From NCBI GenBank assembly GCA_945946765.1, contig CAMEWS010000011.1, positions 1 to 46,863 of the forward strand: a DNA stretch of 46,863 bases, written 5' to 3'. Of the stretch, positions 23,642-45,740 are shown in pieces (positions within the stretch are counted from its first letter, which is position 1; each line of letters opens with the position of its first letter). Below the pieces are notes generated by a model. The model saw only the letters and a list, made by a program, of their open reading frames with translations, was not told the origin of the DNA and searched no databases. The position numbers and the translations under genes were made by a program. This stretch comes from an uncultured Clostridia bacterium. GTDB lineage: Bacteria; Cyanobacteriota; Vampirovibrionia; Gastranaerophilales; Gastranaerophilaceae.

Positions 23642-23849
23642 TATAATTCTCCGTAATTTTGAAATCTGTTTTAAAATATCTGCTATTAATATTGATTACA
23701 ATTCAAAAAAAAATATTCCAAATCATACAAAAAAATGTTATAATGTAACAAAATGTTTCATGTTTTCTGTCAAGTTTTAGAATTTAAGCAACAAAATCCC
23801 TTAAAGCGTTTTATATTATCAGAAGTGTAAACAAATAGGAGTGAAAATT

Positions 23850-24251
23850 ATGTCGGTAGGTTTTTCAACAATCAGACCCATGGACCCTGCAACTATTTCA
23901 AGAGCACCGTCTTTTACAACAACAAACAATACACCAGCAGCAAGCAGCCCTATTGATAATGGCTCTGCTCCCAAAAAGAAAAGTCATTGGTTTTTAAAAA
24001 CTCTTGCAGCAGTTGTTGTAGTGGCTGCAGCATTAGGTTTGGGCAGAAAATATCTTCCTACGGTTTTTGATTCTGCCGCAACAATTGCAAACGATGCAAA
24101 ATGGCACGAAAAAGCAATCGGTTATACCAAAAAATATCTTGGTGTAGCAGGTGATTTTGTTATCAATTGTACAGGCAAAGTTGTAGATTATGCAAAACAA
24201 GGTTGGGAATTTATAGCAAATAAATTCAAAGGCGGAACAACAACTCCTTAA
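23850..24251 (+). CDS. Small single-pass membrane protein
   Basis: The protein has 133 residues. The frame is open from a GTG at 23841, but that GTG is part of the ribosome-binding site AGGAGTG (23837-23843). ATG 23850, 8 nt after AGGAG, is the better start. Residues about 1-45 are Ser/Thr/Pro-rich. KKKSHWFLKTLAAVVVVAAA then forms a membrane segment with a positive flank, and the rest is amphipathic (KWHEKAIGYTKKYLG, DYAKQGWEFIANKFKGG). No family is recognised. It is followed by a strong terminator, so it is monocistronic. Confidence 0.65.
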   Translation: MSVGFSTIRPMDPATISRAPSFTTTNNTPAASSPIDNGSAPKKKSHWFLKTLAAVVVVAAALGLGRKYLPTVFDSAATIANDAKWHEKAIGYTKKYLGVAGDFVINCTGKVVDYAKQGWEFIANKFKGGTTTP

Positions 24252-24338
24252 GTAACATCAGTACCTTAAAATTATCTCCACATATTTGTTATAATCACCT
24301 AAAACAGATAATTGGTATCAGTTGACATACAAAATAAA

Positions 24339-24378
24339 AAATAAACTCTTATGCTATCTTAATAAGAGTTTATTTTTT
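24339..24378. terminator. Strong 14-bp terminator hairpin
   Basis: AAATAAACTCTTAT (24339-24352) pairs perfectly with 24362-24375 across a 9-nt loop, in a run ending in TTTTTT. It separates the membrane protein gene from the structured RNA downstream. Confidence 0.75.
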
Positions 24379-24402
24379 GCATGAAATATATTATTATAAA
24401 TT

Positions 24403-24567
24403 TAGTATGTCCGAGAAAATTTCGTGATAAGGAGTACTCTGCCGAACAAAAGCTGCCGGTGGCAGGTTTTGAGAGAGGACGACGTGAACGAAATTTTTGA
24501 GTGGCTTATTGAAAAGGTGAGCACTTGGACGGCGATGAGAACTCGGCGGCGGTAAAGTGCGACACTA
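24403..24567 (+). ncRNA. Candidate structured non-coding RNA
   Basis: This ~165-nt stretch is much richer in G and C than the DNA around it, has no reading frame, and folds into nested helices. TAGT (24403-24406) plus GTC (24409-24411) pair with GACACTA (24561-24567). CGAG (24412-24415) pairs with CTCG (24542-24545). AAAATTTCGT (24416-24425) pairs with ACGAAATTTT (24488-24497). Inside, CAAAA-g-CTGCC (24447-24457) pairs with GGCAG-g-TTTTG (24461-24471), extended by CTCT/AGAG. In the 3' part AGTGGCT pairs with AGCACT. A TATAAA at 24395-24400 could be the -10 box. It lacks the landmark sequences of RNase P RNA, tmRNA and SRP RNA. It could be a free RNA or the leader of the 24631 gene. Confidence 0.6.
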
Positions 24568-24630
24568 GATTAGTTTAAACTCGGGATAATTCAACAATTA
24601 ACTAAAATCAATTACAAACAAGAGGTCTTA

Positions 24631-25299
24631 ATGTTCAGCAAGGATAAAATTATAGAAATTTTAAACGAAGAAGACTTGTACATAGACAATTTTCTATTGG
24701 AAGCTTTTATCAAAAACTGGAAAATTGAACCTATTTATGAAGACGCTCAAGGTGTTGAATTTTTTGACGAAATGGCTGTTGAAAAAATACGTAACGGAAT
24801 CAAACAAAAACAACCCAAGTGCGAAATCAACATTATGGACAAAGACGAGATAAAACCCGTTGATATGGCTGTGGAAGTTGCTGAAACGTTTGTTCCCGAC
24901 AAAGAATCTGTTGTTGAAGAAACTCACAATCAAAATCAAACCGACAATACTGACATTGTACCCGAATTACCTGTTTCTATTTTGAATGAAGTAAACAAAG
25001 AAGTTGAGAACGAACTTAAAAACGTTACACTTGATATTTCTAACCAAACACTTGCTGTATTAGCAGAATCTATTGCACGCAAAATCACTTATGATGTTGC
25101 AGACTTTATTAAAAAAACAGATTTTATGGAAGATGCAGTACAACTGGGCGAATACAAAAAAGACAACGAGCTTTTAATTAAAAAAGTTGAAGAAATAATT
25201 TCCGACAACAAAATTTTAATCAAACGAATAGAAGAACTTGAAAAAGAAAACCGTTCATTTGTAAAATTGTTCGGCAGTATTTATGTAAAAAATAATTGA
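24631..25299 (+). CDS. Coiled-coil protein of unknown function
   Basis: This 222-residue soluble protein starts at an ATG with AGAGG 6 nt upstream. Residues 1-70 are a compact acidic domain (FSKDKIIEILNEEDLYIDNFLLEAFIK). Residues 75-115 are a polar linker, and the C-terminus (about 165-215) is a coiled coil with ELLIKKVEEIISDNK and IEELEKENRSF. There is no membrane segment. It lies 63 bp downstream of the candidate structured RNA, which may act as its leader, and 50 bp upstream of the CCA-adding enzyme gene on the same strand. I do not recognise the family. Confidence 0.7.
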   Translation: MFSKDKIIEILNEEDLYIDNFLLEAFIKNWKIEPIYEDAQGVEFFDEMAVEKIRNGIKQKQPKCEINIMDKDEIKPVDMAVEVAETFVPDKESVVEETHNQNQTDNTDIVPELPVSILNEVNKEVENELKNVTLDISNQTLAVLAESIARKITYDVADFIKKTDFMEDAVQLGEYKKDNELLIKKVEEIISDNKILIKRIEELEKENRSFVKLFGSIYVKNN

Positions 25300-26666: not shown

Positions 26667-26741
26667 GCGAGAGTAGTTCAGTGGTAGAACACTTCCTTGC
26701 CAAGGAAGGGGTCGCGAGTTCGAGCCTCGTCTCTCGCTCCA
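26667..26741 (+). tRNA. tRNA-Gly (anticodon GCC)
   Basis: The cloverleaf is complete. GCGAGAG pairs with CTCTCGC in the acceptor stem, GTTC/GAAC in the D stem, CTTCC/GGAAG in the anticodon stem with loop TTGCCAA (anticodon GCC), and GCGAG/CTCGT in the T stem with loop TTCGAGC. The discriminator T and CCA are encoded. The 3' half from 26697 on is the integration site of the element that follows, so the tRNA is restored by the element's own copy of the core. Confidence 0.97.
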
Positions 26742-26862: not shown

Positions 26863-27891
26863 TTAATCACTGTAATTTTCAAGTGCTTCAATTGCTTTTA
26901 ATTTCCTTTCAGGTACAGGATGAGCATATCGTTGAGTAGTTTTTAAATCAGCGTGTCCTAAAATTTCTTTTACAACTACAAGGTCAATACCAGCTGCAAC
27001 CATTCTTGTGGCACTGGTGTGTCGTAATCCATGAAAAGTCAAATTCTTAATTTCGGCTTTTTTACATACATTACGAAAGGCTTTAGACAGATATTTATAA
27101 CCTGTTTGAGTAACAGGATTGGTGAAAACATAATCAGATATGGCGTTTTGTTTGAGTTCCTTAAAAATTGCCATTAGCTCATTACATATAGGTATCTTAC
27201 GAATTTTATTATTTTTAGTTTTTAAAAGATTGATACACCTGTTTTTTAAATCTACATTCAAGCTCCACCGTAACTCCATAATCTCACCCCGTCTCATACC
27301 TGTAAGTAAGGCACATTTAATAATCGGTCTGAGATAAGTAAAATCACCAGTACAGTTTTCAAGTAATCTTTCTTCTTCTTTTTTTGTTAAAAATCGCTCT
27401 TTTATGTTATCTACTTTTAAAGGTGTCAAATTGACTGCTAAACAGGGATTTTCTTTGACCATATTTTCTTTAATAGCAAGTGCAAACATTCTTCTTAAAA
27501 TCCCGACTTCTCTATTAATAGTCGCAGGTTTTACACCGTTTTCATCTTTTCTAAATTTTCTGTACTGTTCTATTTTCTTCGGTGTTATATCTTTTAACGG
27601 CGTATTTTTAAAGAAATTTTTTAAAATATTCACCTCTGACATATCATTTTTCCAGCCTGTTCTATTGTTTTTTGCGTATTCTATAAACATATCAACAATC
27701 ACAGAAAAAGGCTGTGTACCTTTATTTTCAACAAGGTCATATTTACCCTGTAACAGGTCTGATTTTATTCTAACTTCCGCCATTTCAGCAGTTTTTTTAT
27801 CAACAGCTTCAGGAATTGCTTTGTGATACTGTTGACCTTTAATAACAAATTTATAATACCAGCGACCGTTTTTATGTTTATAGACTGACAT
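26863..27891 (-). CDS. int: Tyrosine integrase of the tRNA-Gly element
   Basis: The enzyme recombines the att cores for integration and, with an excisionase, excision. Numbered from the chosen start it has 342 residues. An N-terminal arm-binding domain (SVYKHKNGRWYYKF) is followed by a SAM-like core-binding domain (about 58-150). The catalytic domain has R200 in TGMRRGE, H287 and R290 in HGLRHT, H313 in LGHADL and nucleophile Y322 in TQRYAHP. The frame is open from 27921, but GGAG 9 nt before ATG 27891 and a promoter at 27914-27943 fix the start there. The gene is next to attL, as expected for a tRNA-targeting integrase. Confidence 0.96.
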   Translation of the reverse strand: MSVYKHKNGRWYYKFVIKGQQYHKAIPEAVDKKTAEMAEVRIKSDLLQGKYDLVENKGTQPFSVIVDMFIEYAKNNRTGWKNDMSEVNILKNFFKNTPLKDITPKKIEQYRKFRKDENGVKPATINREVGILRRMFALAIKENMVKENPCLAVNLTPLKVDNIKERFLTKKEEERLLENCTGDFTYLRPIIKCALLTGMRRGEIMELRWSLNVDLKNRCINLLKTKNNKIRKIPICNELMAIFKELKQNAISDYVFTNPVTQTGYKYLSKAFRNVCKKAEIKNLTFHGLRHTSATRMVAAGIDLVVVKEILGHADLKTTQRYAHPVPERKLKAIEALENYSD

Positions 27892-27913
27892 TTTTATCTG
27901 CTCCTTTTGATTA

Positions 27914-27943
27914 ATTATCACGTCGTAAGAAGCTTAAAGTCAA
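27914..27943 (-). promoter_or_regulatory. Integrase promoter
   Basis: On the minus strand TTGACT (27943-27938) and GATAAT (27919-27914) are 18 bp apart. The transcript would begin near 27907, only about 15 nt before the integrase ATG. Confidence 0.55.
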
Positions 27944-31845: not shown

Positions 31846-32439
31846 TTAAACAGTTTTAAGGTAGTTGTATAAGTTACCCACCGTAGTATCACACTCCCTC
31901 GCAATAACTGTTTTAGGTACGTTCAAACCCACTAAATACAGTATTTTTTCCCTGTAAACATCAAGCTTTGACTTTCCTTTCTTACCTTTTGGACGACCTA
32001 ACTTCACACCGCTTGCTTTCTTCGCCTGTAAAGCTTCTTTCGTTCTCAAACTGATTAAATCCCTCTCTAATTGAGCTACTAAAGCAAATATTGTCGAAGT
32101 TATAACCGCAGTAATACTTTTGTCATTACTCGCAAAATTTTCTTTTAACGAATACAAAACAAAACCTTTTTCTTTCGACAAATTCAGTATTTCCAGAATC
32201 TGTGTAATAGACCTCGCAAGCCTTGAAAACTCGGGTACAATCAATACATCATCAACACCCATTCTCTCAATCAATAACCCTAACTCACGCTTACGAAAAT
32301 GCAGCTTACCTGTAACTTTTTCCTCAATAAATTCAACATTCCCTAACCTTTTGTCATTGGCGAACTTCAAAATCTCAAGTTTGTTCTTTTCAGTGTCCTG
32401 TTCTAAAGTACTGACACGAAGATAAGCATAAACGGTCAT
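31846..32439 (-). CDS. Serine recombinase (resolvase/invertase family)
   Basis: This 197-residue enzyme has the nucleophile S10 in YLRVST. It also has EFSRLARS, LVAQLERDLISLRTKEAL and a C-terminal HTH (LGRPKGKKGKSK, NVPKTVIARECDTTVGNLYNYL). The frame is open from 32475, but AAAGGA 6-7 nt before the ATG at 32439 and the family's usual start favour the latter. It could resolve element multimers or invert a segment. No neighbouring transposase supports a transposon. Upstream lies a structured, palindromic stretch (32532-32614) that could be its recombination site. Confidence 0.92.
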   Translation of the reverse strand: MTVYAYLRVSTLEQDTEKNKLEILKFANDKRLGNVEFIEEKVTGKLHFRKRELGLLIERMGVDDVLIVPEFSRLARSITQILEILNLSKEKGFVLYSLKENFASNDKSITAVITSTIFALVAQLERDLISLRTKEALQAKKASGVKLGRPKGKKGKSKLDVYREKILYLVGLNVPKTVIARECDTTVGNLYNYLKTV

Positions 32440-32531
32440 AGGCTGTCCTTTCATTTTTTTAACGTGTAAAAACAAGGCAATTAAAAAATTAACTGCCTGT
32501 AAATGAAAAATATATATTATCCTATAATCTA

Positions 32532-32614
32532 GTGACGTTACCTCCGCCTCCTCAACGGAGCCGTAGTTAACTTACCTTTTCAAATGTCACTCACAATTTT
32601 TATATAAAAATTGT
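32532..32614. other. Nested inverted repeats and 22-bp palindrome upstream of the serine recombinase
   Basis: GTGAC (32532-32536) and GTCAC (32586-32590) enclose CTCCG (32542-32546)/CGGAG (32556-32560). Immediately after is a perfect 22-bp palindrome at 32593-32614 (ACAATTTTTAT and its complement). The whole is unusually structured for a short gap. It could be a res-like site, a small RNA or an operator. Confidence 0.4.
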
Positions 32615-32751
32615 TCGTTCCAATAAATACGTATAAATCTTATTTTTATTATATAAATCTATACACTAAAACTCACCCGTTTTTACTGAATGAATTCATA
32701 CAATGTAAACGAACGATTTAAATGTACTTTAATATATTATTTTACTTACTA

Positions 32752-45283: not shown

Positions 45284-45740
45284 GGGATTTAAAAGTTAAA
45301 TTTTGTAGGTTGGGCATACTTGCCCAACAACAGTAGATTTGAGATGGTTGGAAATCGATTGAGTAGCTTGATTCCAAAACGGTCAATCTATACTTTTCTT
45401 GGACTTAAGATAAATCTATTTTTGAAGTTATTGGTGTGGAAACCAAAATTTTTGTCATTCAGAGGGAGTATAACGGCAGATGAATCTCAAAAATTTTGTG
45501 TGACCCTGTCCTTACAAGGCGCAGCCGCAGTGCGGTATCTGTAGATTGTGCAGACCCTGTGGAAAACCAGACATTTTTCACAAAATCAAAGATTTTGGAA
45601 AAAGTAGTCAAACGAGTTCAGGGTGACGGAAAGTTGAAAATTTGTACTTTAAATTGTAAATTTTCTTTAACAAATAAGCAATTATAAAATTTTACAAGTC
45701 TTGTCTTAATAAACGTTACAAACAACAGATTTAATTTTAA
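45284..45740. other. Non-coding region with repeat fragments
   Basis: GTTGGGCA (45309-45316) and TGCCCAAC (45321-45328) form a perfect hairpin. From about 45455 to 45640 there are words of the dispersed family (GTCATTCAGAGGGAGTATAAC, TGTGACCCTGTCC, GAGTTCAGGGTGACGG). Short frames across this area look like translations of repeats. The last 80 bp is AT-rich and should hold the promoter of the 45741 gene. Confidence 0.55.

What the first reader, a model, noticed from the sequence alone, without database searches (positions are those of the whole stretch)
24403..24567. GC-rich structured RNA candidate upstream of a coiled-coil gene
In AT-rich DNA this ~165-nt stretch stands out in composition, has no open frame, and forms nested helices by exact complementarity: 24403-24411/24561-24567, 24412-24415/24542-24545, 24416-24425/24488-24497 and an inner hairpin at 24437-24475. 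It sits right after a strong terminator and has a possible -10 box. It lacks landmark sequences of RNase P, tmRNA or SRP RNA, and I recognise no riboswitch. It could be a new small RNA or a cis-regulator of the 24631 gene.
Basis: partly seen in the sequence, partly recalled or inferred. Interest (0 to 1): 0.75.

Follow-up and report, generated by a model that had tools for sequence, protein, structure and literature searches.

The report
Mobile hairpin repeat, sometimes inside genes
The GC-rich folded stretch is one copy of a short mobile DNA repeat that has spread tens to over a hundred times through genomes of gut bacteria (Gastranaerophilales), mostly between genes but sometimes in frame inside ordinary enzymes, so it is a jumping repeat rather than a dedicated regulatory RNA.

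Summary
The stretch is real, strongly folded (z = -4.35) and matches no Rfam family, but it is not a stand-alone sRNA or a conserved leader of the 24631 gene. Window 24408-24575 is one copy of a dispersed mobile repeat found only in Gastranaerophilales. This genome has 12 copies, a relative at least 150. The genus neighbours whose promoter region for the 24631 gene was read lack it at this site. Three filled/empty site pairs between two sister genomes show precise insertion after an AT-rich target (WAAWWT), sharing at most an 'AT', with no terminal inverted repeats and no consistent duplication. Two hairpins are held by compensatory changes (helix 1: 100% paired, 7 of 10 pairs double-changed). 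The window copy carries, nested in hairpin 1, a 43-nt hairpin that is itself a separate repeat family. Copies are mostly intergenic, but 14 of 189 lie in frame inside ORFs, including dihydrolipoamide dehydrogenase, shikimate kinase, RsmG and Lgt, in both orientations, much like Rickettsia palindromic elements. The moving enzyme was not found: no IS110 or TnpB; RAYT and reverse transcriptase are patchy. RNA and single-stranded-DNA roles for the fold remain undistinguished. New variant of a known kind.

The parts
24408..24575 (+). Copy of the mobile hairpin repeat: 5' end TGTCCGAG, 3' end GACACTAGATTAG(TT)
   Evidence: 99% identical over exactly this span to C34:11484-11651 with unrelated flanks; same ends in 189 copies; covariance model hit, E = 4e-22
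24416..24425 (+). Helix 1, 5' arm (AAAATTTCGT)
   Evidence: pairs with 24488-24497; 7 of 10 pairs with changes on both sides across 21 diverse copies, 100% of cells paired
24488..24497 (+). Helix 1, 3' arm (ACGAAATTTT)
24426..24432 (+). Conserved loop sequence GATAAGG (partner side ACGTGA just before the 3' arm)
   Evidence: near invariant across copies from several genera
24436..24478 (+). Nested 43-nt hairpin module (ACTCTGCCGA...GAGAGG), a separate repeat family, inserted in the loop of helix 1
   Evidence: absent from most copies; 48 distinct occurrences in fetched DNA, 39 of them not recognised as inside this element
24516..24566 (+). Hairpin 2 (arms 24521-24526 / 24555-24560, outer GTG/CAC at 24517-24519 / 24563-24565)
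   Evidence: fold; 6 of 9 pairs with changes on both sides, 89.5% of cells paired
24387..24394 (+). Promoter -10-like TATATTAT of the downstream gene, upstream of the insertion
   Evidence: kept in same-genus orthologs that lack the insertion
24337..24379 (+). Terminator-like hairpin and T-run after the 23841-24251 ORF
   Evidence: read directly from the sequence
24631..25299 (+). Downstream conserved gene (222 aa, unnamed) whose 5' UTR received the insertion
   Evidence: orthologs in all 16 same-genus relatives searched
32522..32624 (-). Second, divergent copy in the window (hairpin 1 reduced to CAATTTTTATATAAAAATTG), about 47 nt upstream of a resolvase-like gene (31846-32475 -)
   Evidence: covariance model hit, E = 1.2e-11; sequence

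Best explanation
It is one insertion of a short (about 110-180 nt, up to about 450 nt when nested) non-autonomous mobile repeat of Gastranaerophilales. Shown: the unit has fixed ends, is spread through the genome with unrelated flanks, inserts precisely after an AT-rich target WAAWWT, and shares at most an 'AT' with the empty site. It keeps two hairpins by compensatory change and carries other hairpin repeats in its loops. Copies inside genes are in frame and stop-free almost without exception. Inferred: an enzyme supplied in trans recognises the hairpin-bearing ends, probably as single-stranded DNA in the manner of IS200/IS605 or REP elements, and pastes the unit into AT-rich targets. Selection then removes insertions that break genes, leaving intergenic copies and in-frame coding copies. 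In the window the unit landed between the promoter and the start codon of the 24631 gene, so it should be transcribed as part of that gene's 5' UTR without having evolved for that gene.
For: Copies: 12 in this genome, at least 150 in G019 with every scored candidate matching, 36 and 40 in G006 and G014, 15-98 in five genomes of other genera of the family. Identity stops at the unit's ends: 99% over 168 nt, then unrelated. Three filled/empty pairs between sister genomes G006 and G014. Missing at the orthologous promoter in the neighbours read, and an independent opposite-strand copy beside the same locus in G002. Target: A 91% at -5 and T 96% at -1 of 187 flanks. Covariation: helix 1 score 0.548 against a shuffled mean of 0.193, helix 2 0.414 against 0.196, 0 of 500 shuffles as high, slid controls far lower. 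In-frame coding copies: 14 by the looser test, and 8 in frame and open against 2 out of frame by the stricter one; Pfam matches lie on both sides of the insert or run across it. Nested modules. Only Gastranaerophilales or unnamed uncultured-bacterium bins hold it; 0 matches in viral contigs.
Against: No enzyme partner was found. Y1 transposase (RAYT-like) genes occur in only 3 of 8 genomes, and were not found in G005, G006 or G014, which carry copies. The RAYT of this genome is flanked by its own GTAG-type repeat. No copy carrying a transposase between the two ends was found. The genomes are mostly metagenome assemblies, so absence and copy number are uncertain. A transcript or an RNA role was not tested; wobble pairs (11 G-T/T-G against 3 A-C/C-A) weakly favour the plus strand being the folded one but do not separate RNA from single-stranded DNA.
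Confidence: 0.88

Rival explanations
1. A cis-regulatory leader or small RNA gene belonging to the 24631 gene.
For: Strong fold, strong covariation, and position between promoter and start codon.
Against: Orthologous promoter regions in the same-genus genomes read lack it. Copies lie beside unrelated genes, in divergent, convergent and antisense arrangements. Near-identical copies have unrelated flanks, and empty sites exist.
Confidence: 0.04
2. A REP-type repeat moved specifically by a RAYT (Y1, HUH) transposase.
For: Short, hairpin-bearing, mostly intergenic, high copy, no consistent target-site duplication; RAYT-like genes exist in G000, G008 and G019.
Against: RAYT genes not found in G005 (99% complete), G006 or G014 although sister genomes G006 and G014 differ in copies. 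The G000 RAYT is flanked by GTAGGTTGGGTGAAACCCAAC repeats in inverted order, not by this unit. No conserved GTAG or CGTC tag at the unit's hairpin feet.
Confidence: 0.25
3. A recombinase-type mover (serine, tyrosine or IS110 bridge-RNA) using the shared 'AT' as a crossover core.
For: In each of the three empty-site pairs an 'AT' can be placed at both junctions; the unit's length and two hairpins recall bridge RNAs (general knowledge).
Against: No IS110-type transposase (PF02371) in 8 genomes, with controls positive. The target is weak and AT-rich rather than a longer guided site. The left junction differs by two bases between genomes. Serine and tyrosine recombinases were not searched for systematically.
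Confidence: 0.1
4. A retro-copied RNA or an intron-like element removed from transcripts.
For: RNA-like covariation; copies inside genes.
Against: Reverse transcriptase (PF00078) found in only 2 of 8 genomes and not in G019, which has the most copies. Copies inside genes are in frame and open, 8 against 2 out of frame by the strict test, which splicing would not require.
Confidence: 0.04

Closest known systems
Rickettsia palindromic elements (RPE)
   Same: About 150 bp, hairpin-forming, many copies, inserted in frame in unrelated protein genes with a conserved peptide (described in PMC10969869).
   Different: Different phylum; sequence homology not tested. Most copies here are intergenic (47 of 49 in the G019 sample), whereas nearly half of RPEs are coding in the review; here empty sites, target preference and nested modules are documented.
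REP / REPIN / BIME elements with RAYT transposases (PMC2817692, PMC3116915, PMC3733652)
   Same: Short, palindromic, high copy, mostly intergenic, mosaic with other palindromes.
   Different: Longer (110-180 nt), two different hairpins with conserved loops, no GTAG/CGTC tag, not flanking the RAYT gene found in this genome.
MITEs, including BOX elements of pneumococcus
   Same: Non-autonomous, small, can provide reading frames (PMC10969869); BOX is also modular (general knowledge).
   Different: No terminal inverted repeats and no consistent target-site duplication.
IS200/IS605-type non-autonomous elements (general knowledge)
   Same: Hairpins near both ends, no target duplication, insertion 3' of a short AT-rich target.
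   Different: No parent element with matching ends found, no TnpB, and no Y1 gene found in some carriers.

Membership tests
Prokaryotic MITE in the strict sense | Terminal inverted repeats | tested here: not met
   Ends TGTCCGAG and CTAGATTAGAT are not inverted copies
Prokaryotic MITE in the strict sense | Target-site duplication | tested here: not met
   Three filled/empty pairs share an 'AT'; a longer overlap is possible in one or two only through ambiguity. Direct repeats across 187 copies are only slightly above shuffled
Non-autonomous mobile element (broad sense) | Precise insertion polymorphism, many copies, no coding for a mover | tested here: met
REP / RAYT system | GTAG or CGTC tag at one end of a 20-40 bp palindrome | tested here: not met
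   No conserved tag at hairpin feet; unit is 110-180 nt
REP / RAYT system | RAYT gene flanked by the repeat | tested here: not met
   In G000 the RAYT is flanked by a different GTAG repeat; in G019 the nearest unit is about 1 kb away
Rickettsia palindromic elements | Short hairpin repeat inserted in frame in unrelated coding genes | tested here: met
   14 of 189 copies by the looser test; in-frame excess; Pfam host domains
Rickettsia palindromic elements | Sequence homology to a described RPE family | not tested
   No RPE sequence set was searched; similarity is in behaviour only
Known structured RNA family (Rfam) | Covariance-model score above gathering threshold | tested here: not met
IS200/IS605-type element | Y1 transposase acting on the subterminal hairpins | tested here: inconclusive
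   Y1 genes in only 3 of 8 genomes, none linked to the unit's ends; activity not testable here
IS110 bridge-RNA element | IS110 (Transposase_20 domain) recombinase in the genome | tested here: not met
   0 of 8 genomes, controls positive
TnpB / omega-RNA system | TnpB-type nuclease in the genome | tested here: not met
   0 of 8 genomes, controls positive

The most novel reading that the evidence does not exclude
A mobile repeat family moved by an as yet unidentified enzyme, with no inverted ends and no target duplication, built from nested interchangeable hairpin repeats, whose 42-codon form can be read through in one frame on each strand and so can enter core enzymes without destroying them: an independent counterpart of Rickettsia palindromic elements that is recently active.
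Probability: 0.35. Interest if true: 0.75.

Novelty: new variant of a known kind. Interest (0 to 1): 0.58.

Why it matters
In-frame palindromic repeats in coding genes are known mainly from Rickettsia, and how they move and why proteins tolerate them is open. A second, apparently young system with empty sites, a defined target, a copy-number range from about 12 to over 150 and copies inside well-studied enzymes makes both questions testable. It also warns that folded, covarying, Rfam-negative stretches in these genomes can be mobile repeats rather than regulatory RNAs, and that gene models of these bacteria carry inserted peptides.

Tried and rejected
Rfam at gathering and permissive thresholds: nothing. 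Similar DNA in phage records and viral contigs: nothing. Search for an element carrying a gene between the two ends: the only long pair (L334, 3.1 kb) is an unrelated neighbour arrangement. The short 74-81 nt hits in G019 looked like ends of a larger element but are mostly copies cut by contig ends or model truncations. Target-site duplication: individual copies tempt (for example L104, L080), but the set as a whole hardly exceeds shuffled flanks. A closing helix TGTC/GACA joining the two ends was considered and dropped, because L361 (TGAC/GACA) breaks it. Bridge RNA, omega-RNA and reverse-transcription ideas were tested by looking for their enzymes and not supported. A promoter-box reading of the WAAWWT left flank was not pursued: recent copies differ there and the pattern fits a target preference.

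Full report
What was checked. The stretch 24403-24567 stands out in GC (about 47%) and folds far better than shuffled sequence (-56.4 kcal/mol, z = -4.35). No Rfam family matches it.

What it is. A search of the window's own genome found a second place 99% identical over 168 nt, plus diverged places. Aligned with flanks, the identity begins at TGTCCGAG and ends at GACACTAGATTAG(TT), with unrelated DNA on both sides. A DNA search of 146 genomes matched 26, in 5 of 84 genera, including 20 of 22 other same-genus genomes (only five candidates per genome were scored). A covariance model built from 20 copies found 12 copies here, at least 150 in G019 where all 150 scored candidates matched, 36 and 40 in the sister genomes G006 and G014, and 15 to 98 in five genomes of four other genera. 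A pattern scan of named genomes returned Candidatus Gastranaerophilales assemblies and unnamed uncultured-bacterium bins, and nothing among viral contigs.

It inserts. In the neighbours whose upstream region of the 24631 gene was read, the promoter is kept and the unit is absent; G002 has an independent copy on the other strand nearby. Between G006 and G014 three filled/empty pairs were aligned: L136 against L163 (TACAAAGAT|TGTCCGAG...CTAGATTAGAT|AAATC; empty TACAAAGATAAATC), L135 against L164 and L133 against L165. The junctions share an 'AT', with no longer duplication common to all. Across 187 flanks the base five before GTCC is A in 91% and the base just before it T in 96%.

It is folded under selection. 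In 21 diverse copies helix 1 is paired in 100% of cells, 7 of 10 pairs show changes on both sides, and the covariation score is 0.548 against 0.193 shuffled and at most 0.143 when slid. Helix 2 in 17 copies: 89.5% paired, 6 of 9 pairs with double changes, 0.414 against 0.196. The tool warns that shuffles ignore relatedness; the slid control keeps it. Wobble pairs on the plus strand outnumber A-C mismatches 11 to 3, a weak hint that the plus strand is the one that folds.

It is modular. The window copy and its twin carry a 43-nt hairpin (24436-24478) in the loop of helix 1 that other copies lack. That hairpin is itself a repeat: 48 distinct occurrences in the fetched DNA, 39 of them not recognised as inside this unit. 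Other copies carry insertions between the hairpins (the 181-nt type of G019) or in hairpin 2, some nested or in tandem.

Where copies sit. In 790 kb of G019, 47 of 49 assessed copies are intergenic though intergenic DNA is only about 12% of the sequence, in all four gene arrangements (17, 12, 10, 8; simple ORF calls). Of 189 unique copies, 14 lie within ORFs open for at least 50 codons on both sides. With a limit of 80 codons, 8 are in frame and open, 2 in frame with a stop and 2 out of frame; some of the latter four are units abutting gene ends. The 8 have lengths divisible by three, against 78 of 181 others. The common form reads CPRKIRDKEQSDVNEFLECHIEKVSSDGSKARGGNCDTRLD on one strand, and a related copy reads HNLVSPTFFDDSSSPKNWGSPFQGATQKFRSRSLSRNFLGQ on the other. 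Pfam places inserts within Pyr_redox_2, SKI, GidB, LGT and UbiA proteins. In shikimate kinase the insert falls between residues aligned to 67 and 69 of 2pt5 chain A, just before the ISTGGG stretch; in dihydrolipoamide dehydrogenase it falls between the parts aligned to 250 and 271 of 6uzi chain A. For L133 and L135 the sister genome has the gene without the insert.

What moves it. Not found. IS110 and TnpB families are absent from eight genomes. RAYT-like Y1 genes are in three, and the one in this genome is bracketed by a GTAG-type REP. Reverse transcriptase is in two and not in the most copy-rich genome. The absence of inverted ends and duplication, the hairpins near both ends and the AT-rich target make a single-strand (HUH-type) mechanism the most likely; this is inference.

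Comparison. By behaviour the closest kind is the Rickettsia palindromic element as summarised in PMC10969869: short, in frame in unrelated genes, with a conserved peptide. The unit fails the strict MITE features (inverted repeats, duplication) and the REP/RAYT features (tag, linkage). Paper searches naming Gastranaerophilales with repeats or insertion sequences returned nothing in the held library, which is not proof of novelty.

Limits. The genomes are largely metagenome assemblies; repeats can break or misjoin contigs, as the many contig ends inside units in G019 show. Copy numbers are lower bounds. No expression data were available.

Noticed in passing
window 32522-32624 (-): A second, divergent copy of the same repeat, with hairpin 1 replaced by a short perfect palindrome, just upstream of a resolvase-like gene.
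   Followed up: partly
window 24436-24478 and 48 distinct occurrences in fetched loci: A separate hairpin repeat family (ACTCTGCCGA...GAGAGG) whose stem sequence changes while its ends stay fixed; it is found nested in several other repeats.
   Followed up: partly
L194 (G000 C64), flanks of the ORF 1360-1914: RAYT-like gene bracketed by inverted GTAGGTTGGGTGAAACCCAAC repeats, a GTAG-type REP with its transposase; one exact GTAGGTTGGG also at window 45305-45314, which may be chance.
   Followed up: partly
L196 and L197 (G019 C11:41036 and 46594): Two Y1 transposase pseudogenes with one internal TAG each in G019, beside an intact gene on a small contig (L193).
   Followed up: no
L144 and L324: Tandem nested modules (AGCGGAATTCC...GGAATTTCAAGACAG repeated two to three times) inside one copy, giving units over 400 nt.
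   Followed up: no
G067 and G030 copies, e.g. L358, L359: In another genus the left hairpin is kept but the right half is different (...AGACAGCG...GGAGAACTGCTTTA), suggesting exchange of the right end.
   Followed up: no
window 26667-26741: tRNA-Gly (gcc) followed closely by an integrase-like gene on the opposite strand (26863-27921), a likely integration site of a genomic island.
   Followed up: no
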